From an uncultured Kiritimatiellota bacterium (GTDB lineage Bacteria > Verrucomicrobiota > Kiritimatiellia > RFP12 > DVOR01), in NCBI GenBank assembly GCA_944389545.1, contig CALXMT010000016.1:1-54196 (forward strand): a stretch of 54,196 bases of DNA. Direction: 5' to 3'. Of this stretch, positions 17,014-22,500 are shown piece after piece (positions within the stretch are counted from its first letter, which is position 1; each line of letters opens with the position of its first letter). A program made the position numbers and the translations under genes. The notes below the pieces were generated by a model. The model made no database searches. It was not told where the DNA came from and saw only the letters and a program-made list of their open reading frames with translations.

Positions 17014-20000
17014 ATGTTCCTTGCAGACGCGTCCGTCAAACGGCCCATCGCGATGAGCGTGCTCATCATCATGCTCTCGTTCCTGGGCGTGATGTCGCTT
17101 CGTAACCTGGGCAACGACCTCCTGCCCACCGTCGACATCCCCTACGTCACCATCTCCGTGACCTACTCCGGCGCCTCGCCGGACGAGATTGAGACCTCCA
17201 TCACCCGAAAAATCGAGGACGCCATCTCGCAGGTCGAAGGCATCAAGCACATCACCTCCACCTGCTTGAACAACTTCACGCAGGTGCTCATCGAGTTCGA
17301 GCTCGACCGCGACGTCGACGTCGCCGCGACAGACGTCCGCGAGAAGATCGACCTCATCCTCGATGAGTTGCCGGAGGACGCCGAGGAACCGGAAATCCTC
17401 AAGTATGACATCAACGCCACGCCTGTCGTCACGATGGTCCTCAAGGCCAAAGGCGATACCCTCAAGGGCGCGACACCGGAACAGACGGCGGAGTTCATCG
17501 ACGAACTCTACGACTATGCTGACGACAAACTGAGCGACCGCTTCTCCTCTCTGGCCGGCGTGGCCAGCGTCGACCTCATCGGCGGCATGGAGCGCGAGGT
17601 CATCGTGGACGTCGACCGCGAGAAACTCGCCGGCCGCGGCCTCTCCATGGCCGATGTCGTCCAAGCCGTCGGCCAGGGCAACATCAAGATCCCGATGGGA
17701 CAGATTGACGCCGGCGACCGTGAGATCTCCCTCACCTTCGATGGCGAACCCGATGAGCCCGAGGGACTCGGCGACATCCAGGTGGGCGTCGTCGAAGGCC
17801 AGCGCGTCTATCTCCGCGACATCGCGACCTTCCACTTCGGCACCGAGCGCGTCACCTCCCGCTCCTTCTACGACGGCGAGCCTTGCGTCACCATGAAGGT
17901 CACGAAGAAGGGCGACGCCAACGGCACGCAGGTCGTCGCGGAAGTCGAGCGCGTGGTCAAGGAACTGGAAGGCAATCTGCCCGGCGGCATGGAGCTGGTC
18001 TGGTTCCGTGACGACGGCACCTACATCAACGCCACGGTCAGCGACGGTTTCGTCTCGGTCTGGCAGGGCGTCCTCCTCACGGGTCTGGTGCTCCTCCTCT
18101 TCTTGGCCGACATCCGCACCGCCTTCGCCGCCTTCGTCTCCATCCCCGTGACGATGTTGGTGACCGCGGGCGTCTTCCCCCTCTTCGGCTATACCTTCAA
18201 TATCATCACCATGTGCGCCGTGGGCATCTCGGTGGGCATCCTGGTGGCAAACTCCATCGTGGTGCTCGAGAATATCGGCGCAGAGTTCGCCAAACGCCGC
18301 GGCACGAAGTACGAAATCGGCCCCGTCGTCGCCTCCGCCACGAGCTACGTCGCCCTCGCGGTCGCGGCCTCGGCCCTCACCAACGTGGTCGTCTTCCTGC
18401 CCATCGCCACGATGTCCTCGCTCGCGGGCAAGTTCCTCTCGCCCTTCGCCGTGGTCGTCACGGTGGCGACCTTCGCCTCGCTCCTCATCTCCTTCACGCT
18501 CACGCCCATCCTTGCCATGGTCACCGTGAACTGGGGCCAGCGCTGGATCAACCCCGCCCTCGCCTGGTGCCTCCGTCCCTGGAATTGGTTCTACCGCCGC
18601 ATGGAGCGCGCCTACGTCAAGTCCGTCAAGTGGGTGGCCCGCGCGCCGTGGCTCTTCCTGGGCGTGGCCACCGGCCTCACCGTCCTCGGCTTCCTCTACT
18701 TCCCCTCGCGCGTCGAGATGGACTTCGTCTCCGAGGTCGACCAGGGCGACGTCACCGTCCGCCTGGAATTCCCCGCCGACTACAACCTGCAGCGGAGCAT
18801 CGAGCGCACCACCTCCATCGCCAATCGCATCCTCGCCACCGAGCCCGCCGTCACCCATTCCAATATCAACTGCGGCAAGGTCCAGGGCCAGATGGGCACC
18901 GTCTCGGAAGGTCCCTATCTCGCCGAGATCAACCTCCGCCTCACCCCCATGACCGAGCGCCCGGAGGACCCCATCGGCGCCATCCGCGCACGCCTCCGCA
19001 CCCTGCTCGCCGAGGAACCCGACTGTATCTACTCCGTCCTGATCCCCTCCGCCGCCGGCGGCGCCAGCCAGGACATCGTGCAGTACGTCAAAGGCCCTGA
19101 CCTCGACGTCATCGACCAGGCCGGCCTCAAGATGCAGAAGGCCTTCGCCGCCGACCCCGTCAACACCGACATCGCCTCCTCCATCCGCCCCGGCCGCCCC
19201 GAGGTCCGCTTCCTCCCCGACCGCGCCGTCCTTCACGACCTCTCCGTCCCCGCCGCCACGCTGGGGCAGTCCCTCCGCGCCAACGTCGCCGGCCTCGAGC
19301 AGACCGTCTACAAGCGCGGCGACCGCTCCTACGACATCCGCGTCCGCTACAGCCAGCGCAACGGCGAGGACCAGATTCCCGCGATGAATCTGCCCGGTCC
19401 CGACGGCTTGCCCTTCACCATCGGCGCCGTCGCCGAGCTCCAGGAAGGTCTCCAGCCCACCATCATCAACCGCTACGACAAGTCCCGCACCGTCGTGCTC
19501 TACGCCAACGCCTCCCGCGGCCACGGCATGGGCACCGCCCTCGCCCACCAGGCCGAGGACATCCAGGAGAACCTGCCCCCCGGTTGCACCGCCACCATCG
19601 GCGGCATGGCCGAGAAGATGAACGAGACTTTCACCGAGTTCGCCACCGTCACCTTCGTTGCCATCGTCCTCACCTACCTCCTCCTCTGCGCCATGATGGA
19701 GTCCTGGACCCAGCCCTTCATCATCCTGCTCACCGTGCCCTTCTCCTACCTCGGGCTCTACATCGCCCTCTGGCTCACCGGCGAGAGCATGTCCATGTTC
19801 GGCCTCCTCGCCGGCGTCATGCTCGTGGGCGTGGTGGTCAACGCCGCCATCCTCCTCATCGACGAGATCAACATCATCCGCCGCACCTATGGCACACCCA
19901 AGCACATCGCCCTCATCCGCGCCGCCAAGCGCAAGTTCCGCCCCATCCTCATGAGCTGCGTCGCCGCCCTCTTCGGCATGCTGCCCATGGCCACCGGCAC

Positions 20001-20127
20001 CGGTCTGGGCTCCGAACTCCGCGCCTCTATCGGCATCGGCTCCGTCGGCGGCATCATCCTCTCCTCCCTCATGGCCCTCTACTTCATCCCCGCCGCCTAC
20101 CTCATCCTCACCCGCCGCAACGCTTAA
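17014..20127 (+). CDS. RND efflux transporter (HAE1/AcrB-like)
   Basis: 1,037 residues, inner-membrane antiporter of the tripartite pump. GGAGG sits 10 bases before the ATG. The N-terminus FLADASVKRPIAMSVLIIM begins TM1; the two large periplasmic loops and 12 TM segments follow the family plan. Hallmarks are PTVDIPYVTISVTYSGASPDEIE, FVSIPVTMLVTAG near TM3, and the TM10 stretch LAGVMLVGVVVNAAILLIDEIN. In TM4, where relatives read GxxVDDxIV or GxxVDNSIV, this protein reads GILVANSIVVLENI: the proton-relay Asp position is Ala412. The rest of the fold is intact. Substrate cannot be inferred. The gap to the adaptor gene is 18 bases. Confidence 0.94.
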   Translation: MFLADASVKRPIAMSVLIIMLSFLGVMSLRNLGNDLLPTVDIPYVTISVTYSGASPDEIETSITRKIEDAISQVEGIKHITSTCLNNFTQVLIEFELDRDVDVAATDVREKIDLILDELPEDAEEPEILKYDINATPVVTMVLKAKGDTLKGATPEQTAEFIDELYDYADDKLSDRFSSLAGVASVDLIGGMEREVIVDVDREKLAGRGLSMADVVQAVGQGNIKIPMGQIDAGDREISLTFDGEPDEPEGLGDIQVGVVEGQRVYLRDIATFHFGTERVTSRSFYDGEPCVTMKVTKKGDANGTQVVAEVERVVKELEGNLPGGMELVWFRDDGTYINATVSDGFVSVWQGVLLTGLVLLLFLADIRTAFAAFVSIPVTMLVTAGVFPLFGYTFNIITMCAVGISVGILVANSIVVLENIGAEFAKRRGTKYEIGPVVASATSYVALAVAASALTNVVVFLPIATMSSLAGKFLSPFAVVVTVATFASLLISFTLTPILAMVTVNWGQRWINPALAWCLRPWNWFYRRMERAYVKSVKWVARAPWLFLGVATGLTVLGFLYFPSRVEMDFVSEVDQGDVTVRLEFPADYNLQRSIERTTSIANRILATEPAVTHSNINCGKVQGQMGTVSEGPYLAEINLRLTPMTERPEDPIGAIRARLRTLLAEEPDCIYSVLIPSAAGGASQDIVQYVKGPDLDVIDQAGLKMQKAFAADPVNTDIASSIRPGRPEVRFLPDRAVLHDLSVPAATLGQSLRANVAGLEQTVYKRGDRSYDIRVRYSQRNGEDQIPAMNLPGPDGLPFTIGAVAELQEGLQPTIINRYDKSRTVVLYANASRGHGMGTALAHQAEDIQENLPPGCTATIGGMAEKMNETFTEFATVTFVAIVLTYLLLCAMMESWTQPFIILLTVPFSYLGLYIALWLTGESMSMFGLLAGVMLVGVVVNAAILLIDEINIIRRTYGTPKHIALIRAAKRKFRPILMSCVAALFGMLPMATGTGLGSELRASIGIGSVGGIILSSLMALYFIPAAYLILTRRNA

Positions 20128-20150
20128 CCGGAGAACAGGGCGCGCGAAGG

Positions 20151-20185
20151 GCGGGGCCACCAAAAGGCGGCCCCGCCGCTTTTTT
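20151..20185 (+). terminator. Terminator of the efflux operon
   Basis: GCGGGGCC (20151-20158) pairs with GGCCCCGC (20169-20176), followed by CGC and six Ts. Confidence 0.9.
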
Positions 20186-20238
20186 CATCCCAGGGGAAAT
20201 AAACCGTAAAAAATACGCAGAATCGTCAGGGGAACAAG

Positions 20239-20512
20239 AGTGTCCGGGGAAATCGCAAGCCTTCTTTTCCGCAAAGACGACCTTGCGTGGAAACCCTGCG
20301 GGCTCCGTCGCTCCCTTCGGTCACGCCGCCCTTGGGATTTCCTCGCTATCGCGTCCCTGACGGGACGCTCAGAAGAGGAATTTAGAAGTTTGGGAGTTTG
20401 GAGGCTTGGAAGCTTGGCCCTGGCCTCGCCTGTCGCGCGCTTGCCGCGCGTTCCGTTCTTCGTTCTCTGTCCTCCGTTCTCCGGGGCGGCGCTAGCCGCC
20501 CCTTTTCCCTTA
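20239..20512. repeat. Composite repeat element with one terminal repeat
   Basis: Begins AGTGTCCGGGGAAATCG (left terminal repeat at 20240). It contains the hairpin module GCGTGGAAACCCTGCGGG ... GGGATTTCCTCGC (20285-20346), a TTTGGGAGTTTGGAGG run (20388-20420), GCGCGCTTGCCGCGCG, and GTTCTCTGTCCTCCGTTCTC with a GGGGCGGCGCTAGCCGCCCC hairpin. No right-hand terminal repeat is found before the palindrome array. Confidence 0.75.
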
Positions 20513-20536
20513 CCTTATTATATAGTACCTTCTGGA

Positions 20537-20732
20537 GGCCCAAAAAGGGTCTTTGGAGAGACGCTTAAGGGGTCTTTCTGAGACCCTATAAGGGTCCGAG
20601 GTCAACCACTATAGGGGTCGGTGGTGAGACCCTATAAGGGTCGAGGGTCAACCCTTATAGTGGTCCAAGGCCGACCCTTATAGGGTCTCAAAAGAGGGGC
20701 AAAAAGGGCCTTTGAGAGGTGCCTTTCGGGTG
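20537..20732. repeat. Phased array of about nine 15-bp palindromes
   Basis: Near-palindromic units of consensus GACCC-NNNNN-GGGTC with A/T-rich cores lie at 20537-20551, 20560-20574, 20582-20596, 20604-20619, 20628-20642, 20650-20665, 20673-20687, 20696-20710 and 20718-20732. Centres are 22-23.5 bases apart throughout, about two helical turns. Units 3 and 5 are identical and unit 7 is their reverse complement core; outer units diverge. Spacers of 7-8 bases are themselves G-rich or C-rich, so GGGTC and GACCC blocks alternate about every 11 bases. A TATATATAAGG palindrome at 20763-20776 falls on the same phase two steps later. No ORF covers it. It could be a protein-binding array or an RNA hairpin series. 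Confidence 0.8.
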
Positions 20733-21020
20733 ATTGCGAGGGAGAATTTGGCTCTGTGAGGTCCCTATATATAAGGTAGGGGGCAATAGGCCACTCCGGC
20801 GAACAGAGCGTGCAGGCCCAAAGGGCCAAACCTTCCACGGCCACGGAAAACGGAGCGCGCGGCAAGCGCGACGGGTGAGGGCGTAGTGCAAAGCGGCGAA
20901 ACCGCCCTCCTAGTCGTCCTATAGGTCCTATATGTCCTACCGTGTCGTCTAAGAACTGCCAATCAGCCAATCTGCTAATCAGCCGGGCGCTCTGATGGAG
21001 CGCCCGTCCCTTCGTGGAAA
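20733..21020. repeat. Mosaic repeat region downstream of the AAA-ATPase gene
   Basis: No gene seen. It contains fragments of the CGGAAAACGGAGCGCGCGG module (20835-20870), a TAGTCGTCCTATAGGTCC run (20910-20940), an AATCAGCCAATCTGCTAATC run, and a hairpin GGGCGCTC/GAGCGCCC (20985-20992 and 20998-21005) that recurs inverted at 31271-31291 with the same GCTGATTAGC tail. The hairpin lacks a T-run, so I do not call it a terminator. Confidence 0.65.
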
Positions 21021-22163
21021 TCAAGTGCGCGGTTCGGCGAGCAGGGCATAGAGGGCTCGGCGGACTTCCTCGTTCGGCACGCCGAGGGTGAAGCGAGGGT
21101 TCTTGAAGGCTTTGATGGAGAGGTATCCGCCTTGATAAAGAATGGAATTCGCCGTGATGGCCTCCAGATCGCAGATATCCAAATCTTCCTCGGAGAGATG
21201 CTCCACGTTGTCGTAATCCTCCTCTGTCAAGTTACGTGCGGTGAGCGCGTTGATCAAGGCAGGGCGATCGGCGTTCGTCCATGTGGACACAAACGTTTTC
21301 TCTTTTGCCCCAAGCGTCTTGGCAATGGAGGCTGGATTGTAGACTTTGGTCGTGTTCCAGCGGGCAAAACGGTAGCCGCTGTACCACCGGCGGAGCTCTG
21401 TGCGATAATCCTCATACGCAAGCCCCATCACCTCGGCGTGCGCGTGCATATCCACGCTGAAGGTGGACTCCAACTCTTCATCGGTGTAGCCCAACAAAGT
21501 GGCGTAACGGTCGTCCAGCGTCAAGTCGTTGAGGTTGTTCAACGTTGAAAAGATAGAGTCTGGCACATAGCGTGTGATACCGGTCATCATCGAGAAGCGG
21601 ATGTCGGCGGCTTCGTTCTTGATTTCACCGCAGAAGTTGATGAGCTCAGAACGGATTGCCTTGGCCTTGGCGACATCATTCAGCGCGGCATTGATCGGCG
21701 CATCGTAGTCGTCGATGAGAATAACAACGCATTTGCCGTTGATTTGCTTAAGGAAGTTGATGGCTTTGGCAAAGTTGGCATGGGGGAAAATCGCGTCATC
21801 CCACTTACATCCAGCCTCGATTAAGACCTTTCTGACATGGTTGCGGAAATCACGCTCGAACGCCTCCAAGGTCTCCACATTGAGACCCGAGAAGTTGAAA
21901 TGGAGGATGGGATATTCCGCCCAGTCGTAGTCCAACTTATCGATGGCAAGGCCCTTGAAGAGCTCGCGTTGCCCGCGGAAGAGACACTCCAGCGTGGAGA
22001 GCATCAGCGATTTGCCGAAACGCCGCGGACGCGAGATGAAATAGAGCGAACGCGTCGGATCACACGCCAATTCGTGCAGAATCGCGGTCTTATCCACGTA
22101 AATGCACCCATTCTCCCGCAACTTGCGGAAGTCTGCGATGTCTTGTGCGATTCTCGGTTCCAT
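21021..22163 (-). CDS. AAA-ATPase-like protein (PF09820-type), short form
   Basis: 380 residues; start at 22163 chosen for the AAGGAG 8 bases upstream and the promoter just before it. The family opening FRKLRENGCIYVDKTAILHEL (12-32) precedes a variant Walker A RPRRFGKS (45-52) and Walker B CVVILIDDYDAPI (145-157), with the typical ITRYVPDSIFSTLNNLNDLTLD and YGxRF-like WYSGYRFARWN stretches. These large families (AAA-ATPase_like, often with a PD-(D/E)XK nuclease domain at the C-terminus) are usually over 500 residues. Here the protein stops at ALYALLAEPRT, just after the LYQGGYLSIK segment, so the nuclease domain is absent. Function is unknown; the family is variable and often found in accessory regions. 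Confidence 0.85.
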   Translation of the reverse strand: MEPRIAQDIADFRKLRENGCIYVDKTAILHELACDPTRSLYFISRPRRFGKSLMLSTLECLFRGQRELFKGLAIDKLDYDWAEYPILHFNFSGLNVETLEAFERDFRNHVRKVLIEAGCKWDDAIFPHANFAKAINFLKQINGKCVVILIDDYDAPINAALNDVAKAKAIRSELINFCGEIKNEAADIRFSMMTGITRYVPDSIFSTLNNLNDLTLDDRYATLLGYTDEELESTFSVDMHAHAEVMGLAYEDYRTELRRWYSGYRFARWNTTKVYNPASIAKTLGAKEKTFVSTWTNADRPALINALTARNLTEEDYDNVEHLSEEDLDICDLEAITANSILYQGGYLSIKAFKNPRFTLGVPNEEVRRALYALLAEPRT

Positions 22164-22182
22164 AACCAAACTCCTTGCCCAC

Positions 22183-22191
22183 AGTATAGCA
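22183..22191 (-). promoter_or_regulatory. Extended -10 promoter of the AAA-ATPase gene
   Basis: Minus-strand TGC-TATACT, 19 bases before the ATG at 22163, with AAGGAG between. Confidence 0.65.
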
Positions 22192-22227
22192 TAAGGGGCA
22201 CCCGCGCGCCCCGGAAACCGGAACACC

Positions 22228-22500
22228 CAATAGTGTCCGGGGAAATCGGCAAGCCTCCTTCTCCCGCAAAAACGCCAGTACGCGCGAAGCCAGATGGGCT
22301 GACGCCGGTCGCTTTGCGGGCTAAACGCCCGCTGATCGCTCCCTCCCGCCATCGTCTTCGCGCTTGGGCCGTCTTTCATGTCTCTCCCGCGCAGGAAAGT
22401 GGGGCGCGGGAGGGCGCACGACCGTGTGCCCGGCGTTAGCGCCCCACATTTCCTGCAAGAGTTGCGTCTTTGCGGTCTCCATTTTCCCCGGACAGTATTG
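22228..22500. repeat. Complete terminal-inverted-repeat element, 273 bp
   Basis: The best-preserved copy. Left end CAATAGTGTCCGGGGAAA and right end TTTCCCCGGACAGTATTG differ at one base over 18. It contains the GCGAAGCCAGATGGGC...CTTCGCGCTT hairpin module (about 22275-22370) and the GCAGGAAAGTGGGGCGC hairpin module (22389-22456), whose inner stem GCGCAC/GTGTGC holds a G-T wobble. It has no ORF. It separates the AAA-ATPase gene from the restriction-modification gene. Confidence 0.9.

What the first reader, a model, noticed from the sequence alone, without database searches (positions are those of the whole stretch)
20537..20776. Nine palindromes phased at 22-23 bases: an undescribed array
Seen directly: nine near-palindromic 15-mers of form GACCC-AT core-GGGTC, with centres at about 20544, 20567, 20589, 20611, 20635, 20657, 20680, 20703 and 20725. 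The step is 22-23.5 bases each time, about two helical turns, and GACCC and GGGTC blocks alternate roughly every turn. A TATATATA-centred palindrome at 20769 falls on the same phase. Units vary in sequence but keep symmetry and phase, which suggests selection on shape or binding rather than recent tandem copying. Candidates: a cooperative repressor/partition-protein array, a nucleoid-protein docking site (an HU-like gene lies at 13.7 kb), or an RNA of serial hairpins. Spacing is not a multiple of three, so it is not coding.
Basis: partly seen in the sequence, partly recalled or inferred. Interest (0 to 1): 0.8.

Follow-up and report, generated by a model that had tools for sequence, protein, structure and literature searches.

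The report
Dispersed 23-bp phased palindrome arrays
A run of evenly spaced mirror-like DNA motifs beside a bacterial pump gene is one of at least 62 such runs in gaps between genes of this gut Kiritimatiellota genome; they occur in only three related species, and their fixed 23-base spacing suggests docking sites for an unknown DNA-binding protein.

Summary
Five strong palindromes (centres 20589, 20611.5, 20635, 20657.5, 20680), one moderate (20567) and three weak outer ones step at 22-24 bp; the window has no comparable chain. The array is not unique: I verified 62 arrays in this genome, 77 in a sister species (scan truncated) and 4 in a third. Of 388 phylum genomes only these three have it; viruses, phages, plasmids and Rfam have none. 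Arrays hold 2-8 units. TATA centres are 22 or 23 bp apart in all 431 measured steps, although linkers take 127 sequences. Between species, ACC/TATA/GGT positions changed in 1 of 440 columns versus 35 of 687 elsewhere (after removing search-biased columns, 1/175 versus 23/425). Length changes between reliably aligned arrays come in whole 23- or 46-bp units. All but one array are intergenic, near gene 3' ends and enriched between convergent genes, without strand bias, base-pair covariation or terminators; no RAYT transposase was found in the three species. Best reading: a BIME-like dispersed mosaic repeat whose core works as double-stranded DNA, as a docking array for an unidentified dimeric protein. 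The protein is inferred, not found. Strict same-face phasing is doubtful, since 23 bp is 2.2 turns.

The parts
20582..20596 (+). core unit 1, GACCCTATAAGGGTC preceded by GA (directional 'GAGACCC' type)
20605..20618 (.). core unit 2, ACCACTATAGGGGT
20628..20642 (+). core unit 3, GACCCTATAAGGGTC (GAGACCC type)
20651..20664 (.). core unit 4, ACCCTTATAGTGGT
20673..20687 (-). core unit 5, GACCCTTATAGGGTC followed by TC (GAGACCC type, reversed; closes the array as an inverted repeat)
20560..20574 (.). outer moderate palindrome GACGCTTAAGGGGTC, in register (5/7)
20537..20551 (.). outer weak palindrome GGCCCAAAAAGGGTC (4/7)
20696..20710 (.). outer weak palindrome (3/7) in a right-hand module that resembles the one at the sister-species locus
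20511..20529 (+). left terminal inverted repeat TACCTTATTATATAGTACC, present at about 20 arrays in this genome only
20760..20778 (-). right terminal inverted repeat (reverse complement TACCTTATATATAGGGACC)
20483..20502 (+). intrinsic-terminator-like hairpin just before the array
17014..20127 (+). flanking AcrB/AcrD/AcrF-type RND transporter gene (PF00873), convergent neighbour
21021..22379 (-). flanking AAA-ATPase_like gene (PF09820), convergent neighbour

Best explanation
The locus is one member of a lineage-specific, high-copy, dispersed intergenic repeat family. SHOWN: tandem 22-23-bp units, each an imperfect dyad ACC-N(1-2)-TATA-N(1-2)-GGT (or ACCCTTAAGGGT), 2-8 per array, in at least 62 arrays of this genome; unit register fixed while linker sequence varies; half-site letters conserved between species; length changes mostly in whole units; no strand preference; no base-pair covariation. 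INFERRED: the arrays act as double-stranded DNA. A dimeric DNA-binding protein occupies each dyad and a fixed 23-bp pitch lets neighbouring dimers contact each other, giving nucleoprotein patches at the 3' ends of transcription units. The likeliest use is chromosome organisation or supercoil/transcription insulation, as proposed for BIMEs. Copies are mosaics: cores are exchanged between loci and grow or shrink by 23- or 46-bp steps, presumably by recombination. The protein has not been identified.
For: Copies and controls: (96 and 159 exact sites in two species, reversed control 0). TATA-centre spacing 23 bp in 394 and 22 bp in 37 of 431 steps, nothing else, with 127 distinct linkers that differ from each other by about 45%; single steps have SD 0.5 bp. 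Orthologous arrays: core letters 1/440 changed versus 25/539 in linkers and 10/148 in variable positions, and 1/175 versus 23/425 (p = 0.005) after removing columns that the searches had selected for. Indels within reliably aligned orthologous arrays are 23 or 46 bp, while intergenic flanks carry about 1 indel per 8 substitutions. The two halves of a dyad vary independently (94 observed perfect against 94.9 expected), as expected for two protein half-sites. No orientation bias against genes (40:30, p = 0.28). Convergent enrichment 21/70 versus 13/130, p = 0.0006.
Against: No binding protein identified and no experimental data. 23 bp is 2.2 turns of relaxed B-DNA, so sites rotate by about 70 degrees per unit unless the protein follows a spiral or wraps the DNA. 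Some orthologous arrays have wholly different cores, so exact content is not conserved. Overall array divergence is only slightly below that of the flanks (69/1243 versus 524/7246). Position near 3' ends is also what a tolerated selfish element would show. Units within arrays share ancestry, so the 431 steps are not independent.
Confidence: 0.45

Rival explanations
1. Selfish palindromic repeat (MITE- or REP-like) that spread in the ancestor of three species, tolerated in intergenic DNA, with no host function. Register is inherited from a recent ancestor and maintained by homogenisation among copies.
For: High copy number and narrow distribution (3 of 388 phylum genomes); about 20 copies carry terminal inverted repeats TACCTTAT..; the cores sit among mosaic repeat modules; at least one G000 array region (L014) has no counterpart at the matching G003 site, though the extra segment is about 930 bp and holds more than the array.
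Against: Most arrays lack the terminal repeats; no target-site duplication found; no Y1/RAYT transposase in the three species; invariant spacing despite variable linkers, and conserved half-sites between species; arrays kept at matching sites in sister species.
Confidence: 0.35
2. Transcribed hairpin element: transcription terminator, 3' mRNA stabiliser or structured RNA.
For: Single-strand folding is far stronger than shuffles (z = -8.2 and -7.1); arrays lie near gene 3' ends (60 of 71 in tandem contexts).
Against: Folding follows trivially from near-palindromic tandem units. 52 distinct arrays show no compensatory change and no more pairing than column-shuffled controls. The commonest unit pairs poorly. 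No strand bias. Terminator-like sites in only 14 of 268 array strands. Half of the gene ends have a terminator-like hairpin before the array (64 of 128; reverse-strand control 44), as here at 20483-20502. No Rfam match at gathering score.
Confidence: 0.15
3. Recombination sites: inverted arms TATARKGGT-(9-10 bp)-ACCMYTATA resemble a tyrosine-recombinase core site, and the array is a substrate for a site-specific recombinase.
For: Geometry (two arms, short spacer); the core is in the opposite orientation at the matching site downstream of acrB in the sister species; one G003 array joins flanks that belong to two G000 loci.
Against: Spacers are not conserved; no recombinase linked to the arrays; homologous recombination among many copies, or draft-assembly joins, explain the rearrangements.
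Confidence: 0.05

Closest known systems
BIME / REP (palindromic unit) mosaics of enterobacteria, Stenotrophomonas and others
   Same: High copy number, extragenic, several palindromic units per element in tandem, mosaic composition, variable unit number, lineage-specific sequence; BIMEs bind gyrase, IHF and Pol I (PMC2817692).
   Different: Dyads of 12-14 bp at a fixed 22-23-bp pitch, where inter-REP segments can vary substantially in length (Stenotrophomonas). Halves vary independently, whereas REP palindromes are reported to be preserved by complementary changes. No RAYT in these species.
MITEs
   Same: Short non-coding dispersed elements; some copies end in terminal inverted repeats.
   Different: Most copies lack terminal repeats; no target-site duplication or parent element found; the tandem core varies in unit number.
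Plasmid iterons and partition-site arrays (from general knowledge)
   Same: Tandem protein-binding sites of about 20-22 bp with a fixed pitch.
   Different: Scores of chromosomal loci, none tied to a replication or partition gene here.
Small dispersed repeats of cyanobacteria (from general knowledge; not read here)
   Same: Units of about 20-25 nt, partly palindromic, dispersed between genes.
   Different: No sequence comparison was made; fixed-register arrays are not, to my knowledge, their defining feature.

Membership tests
REP/BIME | high-copy extragenic palindromic units in composite tandem arrangements | tested here: met
   62 and 77 verified arrays in two species; only one array context overlaps a predicted gene
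REP/BIME | cognate RAYT (PF01797) in the genome | tested here: not met
   no match in the three carrier species; matches only in two genomes of the genus that lack the arrays
REP/BIME | palindromy preserved by complementary changes (hairpin needed) | tested here: not met
   no compensatory changes in 52 arrays, halves independent
REP/BIME | binding of gyrase, IHF or Pol I | not testable with these tools
   needs ChIP or EMSA
MITE | terminal inverted repeats | tested here: inconclusive
   present at about 20 of at least 62 arrays in this genome; the same ends head other repeats
MITE | target-site duplication and clean empty sites | tested here: inconclusive
   candidate empty sites (for example L014 against L124) differ by more than the array; no duplication seen
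Intrinsic terminator / structured RNA | conserved base pairing, strand-specific placement, U-run | tested here: not met
Structured RNA of a known family | Rfam match | tested here: not met
   nothing at gathering score over 20000-21100
Cooperative protein-docking array | conserved half-sites, fixed pitch, strand symmetry | tested here: met
Cooperative protein-docking array | a cognate protein that binds | not testable with these tools
   no candidate identified

The most novel reading that the evidence does not exclude
A clade-specific chromosome-organising system: a dedicated DNA-binding protein assembles on 23-bp-pitch arrays at scores of gene 3' ends, forming spiral nucleoprotein patches that insulate neighbouring transcription units. 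It arose within one genus of Kiritimatiellota.
Probability: 0.2. Interest if true: 0.8.

Novelty: new variant of a known kind. Interest (0 to 1): 0.5.

Why it matters
It is a high-copy palindromic repeat family without the usual transposase and without covariation for hairpins, but with strict register and conserved half-sites. That separates 'DNA-binding array' from 'hairpin' for such repeats with sequence data alone. If a binder exists, a lineage has built a genome-wide docking system that its congeners lack, which offers natural with/without comparisons between closely related species.

Tried and rejected
RAYT/REPtron origin: PF01797 absent from carriers. Rfam family: none at gathering score. 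Phage or plasmid origin: no match in viral contigs, phages or plasmids. A counterpart with another sequence in two congeners: no excess of phased palindromes and no palindromic repeat family in 200 kb of G007 and 85 kb of G006. Association with AAA-ATPase_like genes: 1.8 hits per 100 kb near arrays against 0.65 and 2.5 in small controls, no association. The single site in G004 lies inside a predicted gene and is taken as chance. Gene calls came from a simple codon-usage caller of my own, so distances to genes are approximate. A literature search for this phylum with repeat terms found nothing.

Full report
OBSERVATION. The window was read at 19.5-21.8 kb. Dyad scoring gives five strong centres (20589, 20611.5, 20635, 20657.5, 20680), a moderate one at 20567, and weak ones at 20544, 20703 and 20725; this is the longest such chain in the window, 6 members against 3 elsewhere. 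So the finding is real, but 'nine' overstates it.

IT IS A REPEAT FAMILY. A blastn search of the own genome gave 40 scored copies of the core. The palindrome ACCMYTATARKGGT occurs 96 times, its reversed control 0. In the genus, G003 has 159, G005 has 8, G004 has 1 and thirteen others have none; the G004 site lies in a predicted gene. A two-unit pattern is found in 3 of 388 genomes of the phylum, all in this genus. G003 is CALXOF01, an uncultured Kiritimatiellaeota bacterium. Viral contigs, phages and plasmids have none. Reading loci gave 62, 77 and 4 distinct arrays in G000, G003 and G005; these are lower bounds.

ANATOMY. Units are of three kinds: directional GAGACCC-TATA-(RK)GGTC, near-symmetric ACC(AC/CC/CT)TATA(GT/GG/AG)GGT, and ACCCTTAAGGGT. 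The commonest order is directional, symmetric, directional, TTAA-type. Linkers are 9 or 10 nt in 429 of 431 cases, with 127 sequences. When the left arm is one base shorter the linker before it is one base longer, so TATA-to-TATA spacing is 23 (394) or 22 (37) and never anything else. The regular expression allowed any linker up to 13 nt, so the tightness is not imposed by it. About 20 copies, including this one (20511-20778), carry outer inverted repeats TACCTTAT..; the same ends also head unrelated repeats.

EVOLUTION. Sister-species loci often carry an array at the matching place. In reliably aligned pairs, length differences are 23 or 46 bp (L018/L156; L082 against L042 of G005). One pair shows a unit-type swap (L080/L144), and some cores are replaced outright (L072/L150). 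Downstream of acrB, the sister species has an array whose right-hand module resembles the window's and whose core has the other orientation. G005 has an array beyond a small gene downstream of its acrB, but the flanks do not let me call it orthologous. Core letters changed in 1 of 440 columns, linkers 25 of 539, variable positions 10 of 148. Because loci had been fetched with motif patterns, I removed all pattern-matched columns: 1 of 175 against 23 of 425, p = 0.005.

CONTEXT. Of the roughly 138 array contexts one overlaps a predicted gene, at its edge. Convergent gaps are enriched (21/70 versus 13/130) and 60 of 71 tandem-context arrays are nearer the upstream gene's 3' end. There is no strand bias. 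In G005 one array lies in the 132-bp gap between cas4 and cas1, an unlikely place for a terminator.

DNA OR RNA. The strand folds strongly, but any tandem of near-palindromes does. Tests on 52 distinct arrays of one architecture: no compensatory changes; pairing not above column shuffles (1516 against 1517 +/- 1); intra-unit pairing 73%. Halves of symmetric dyads combine at random. Arrays carry few terminator-like sites (14 of 268 strands), and here a terminator-like hairpin precedes the array. This favours action as duplex DNA.

MECHANISM (inferred). Conserved half-sites, fixed pitch, strand symmetry and unit-wise growth point to docking of a dimeric protein with contacts between neighbours. 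At 23 bp (2.2 turns) the dimers would follow a spiral rather than one face. No protein is identified, and a selfish repeat remains a serious rival (0.35).

COMPARISON. It works most like BIMEs, which are reported to bind gyrase and IHF (PMC2817692). It fails two REP/BIME features tested (RAYT, complementary changes), so it is not filed as a REP.

Noticed in passing
L153 (G003) against L034 and L019 (G000): One G003 array joins flanks that lie at two different G000 loci: a rearrangement or assembly breakpoint at an array.
   Followed up: partly
L029, about 1600-2000; L022 after the array: An array is split by an element of about 300 bp with ends GGTCGCTGATGAAAAAGT / ACTTTTTCATCACCGACC, entering at the TATA centre; the same kind of end follows the array in L022.
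   Followed up: no
L087, L090, L094-L096, L098: TACCTTATATATAAGG heads another intergenic repeat family with CAAAGACCTGTCATT motifs.
   Followed up: no
L207 1635-1767 (G005): A four-unit array fills most of the gap between cas4 and cas1.
   Followed up: partly
L126 (G003): Four tandem blast matches to an AAA-ATPase_like (PF09820) gene region near an array.
   Followed up: partly
window 20436-20463 and 20843-20870: A 28-nt inverted repeat (89%) encloses the whole element; such CGCGC/ACGGAGAACGGA modules are common intergenic repeats in these two species.
   Followed up: no
window about 20912-20942: Tandem GTCCTATAGGTCCTATATGTCCTA repeats, related to a TATAGGACCTATAGGAC family in G003.
   Followed up: no
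L186-L195 (G007): A tandem TGGTAAGTGGTAAATGG repeat is the top repeated word in this congener sample.
   Followed up: no
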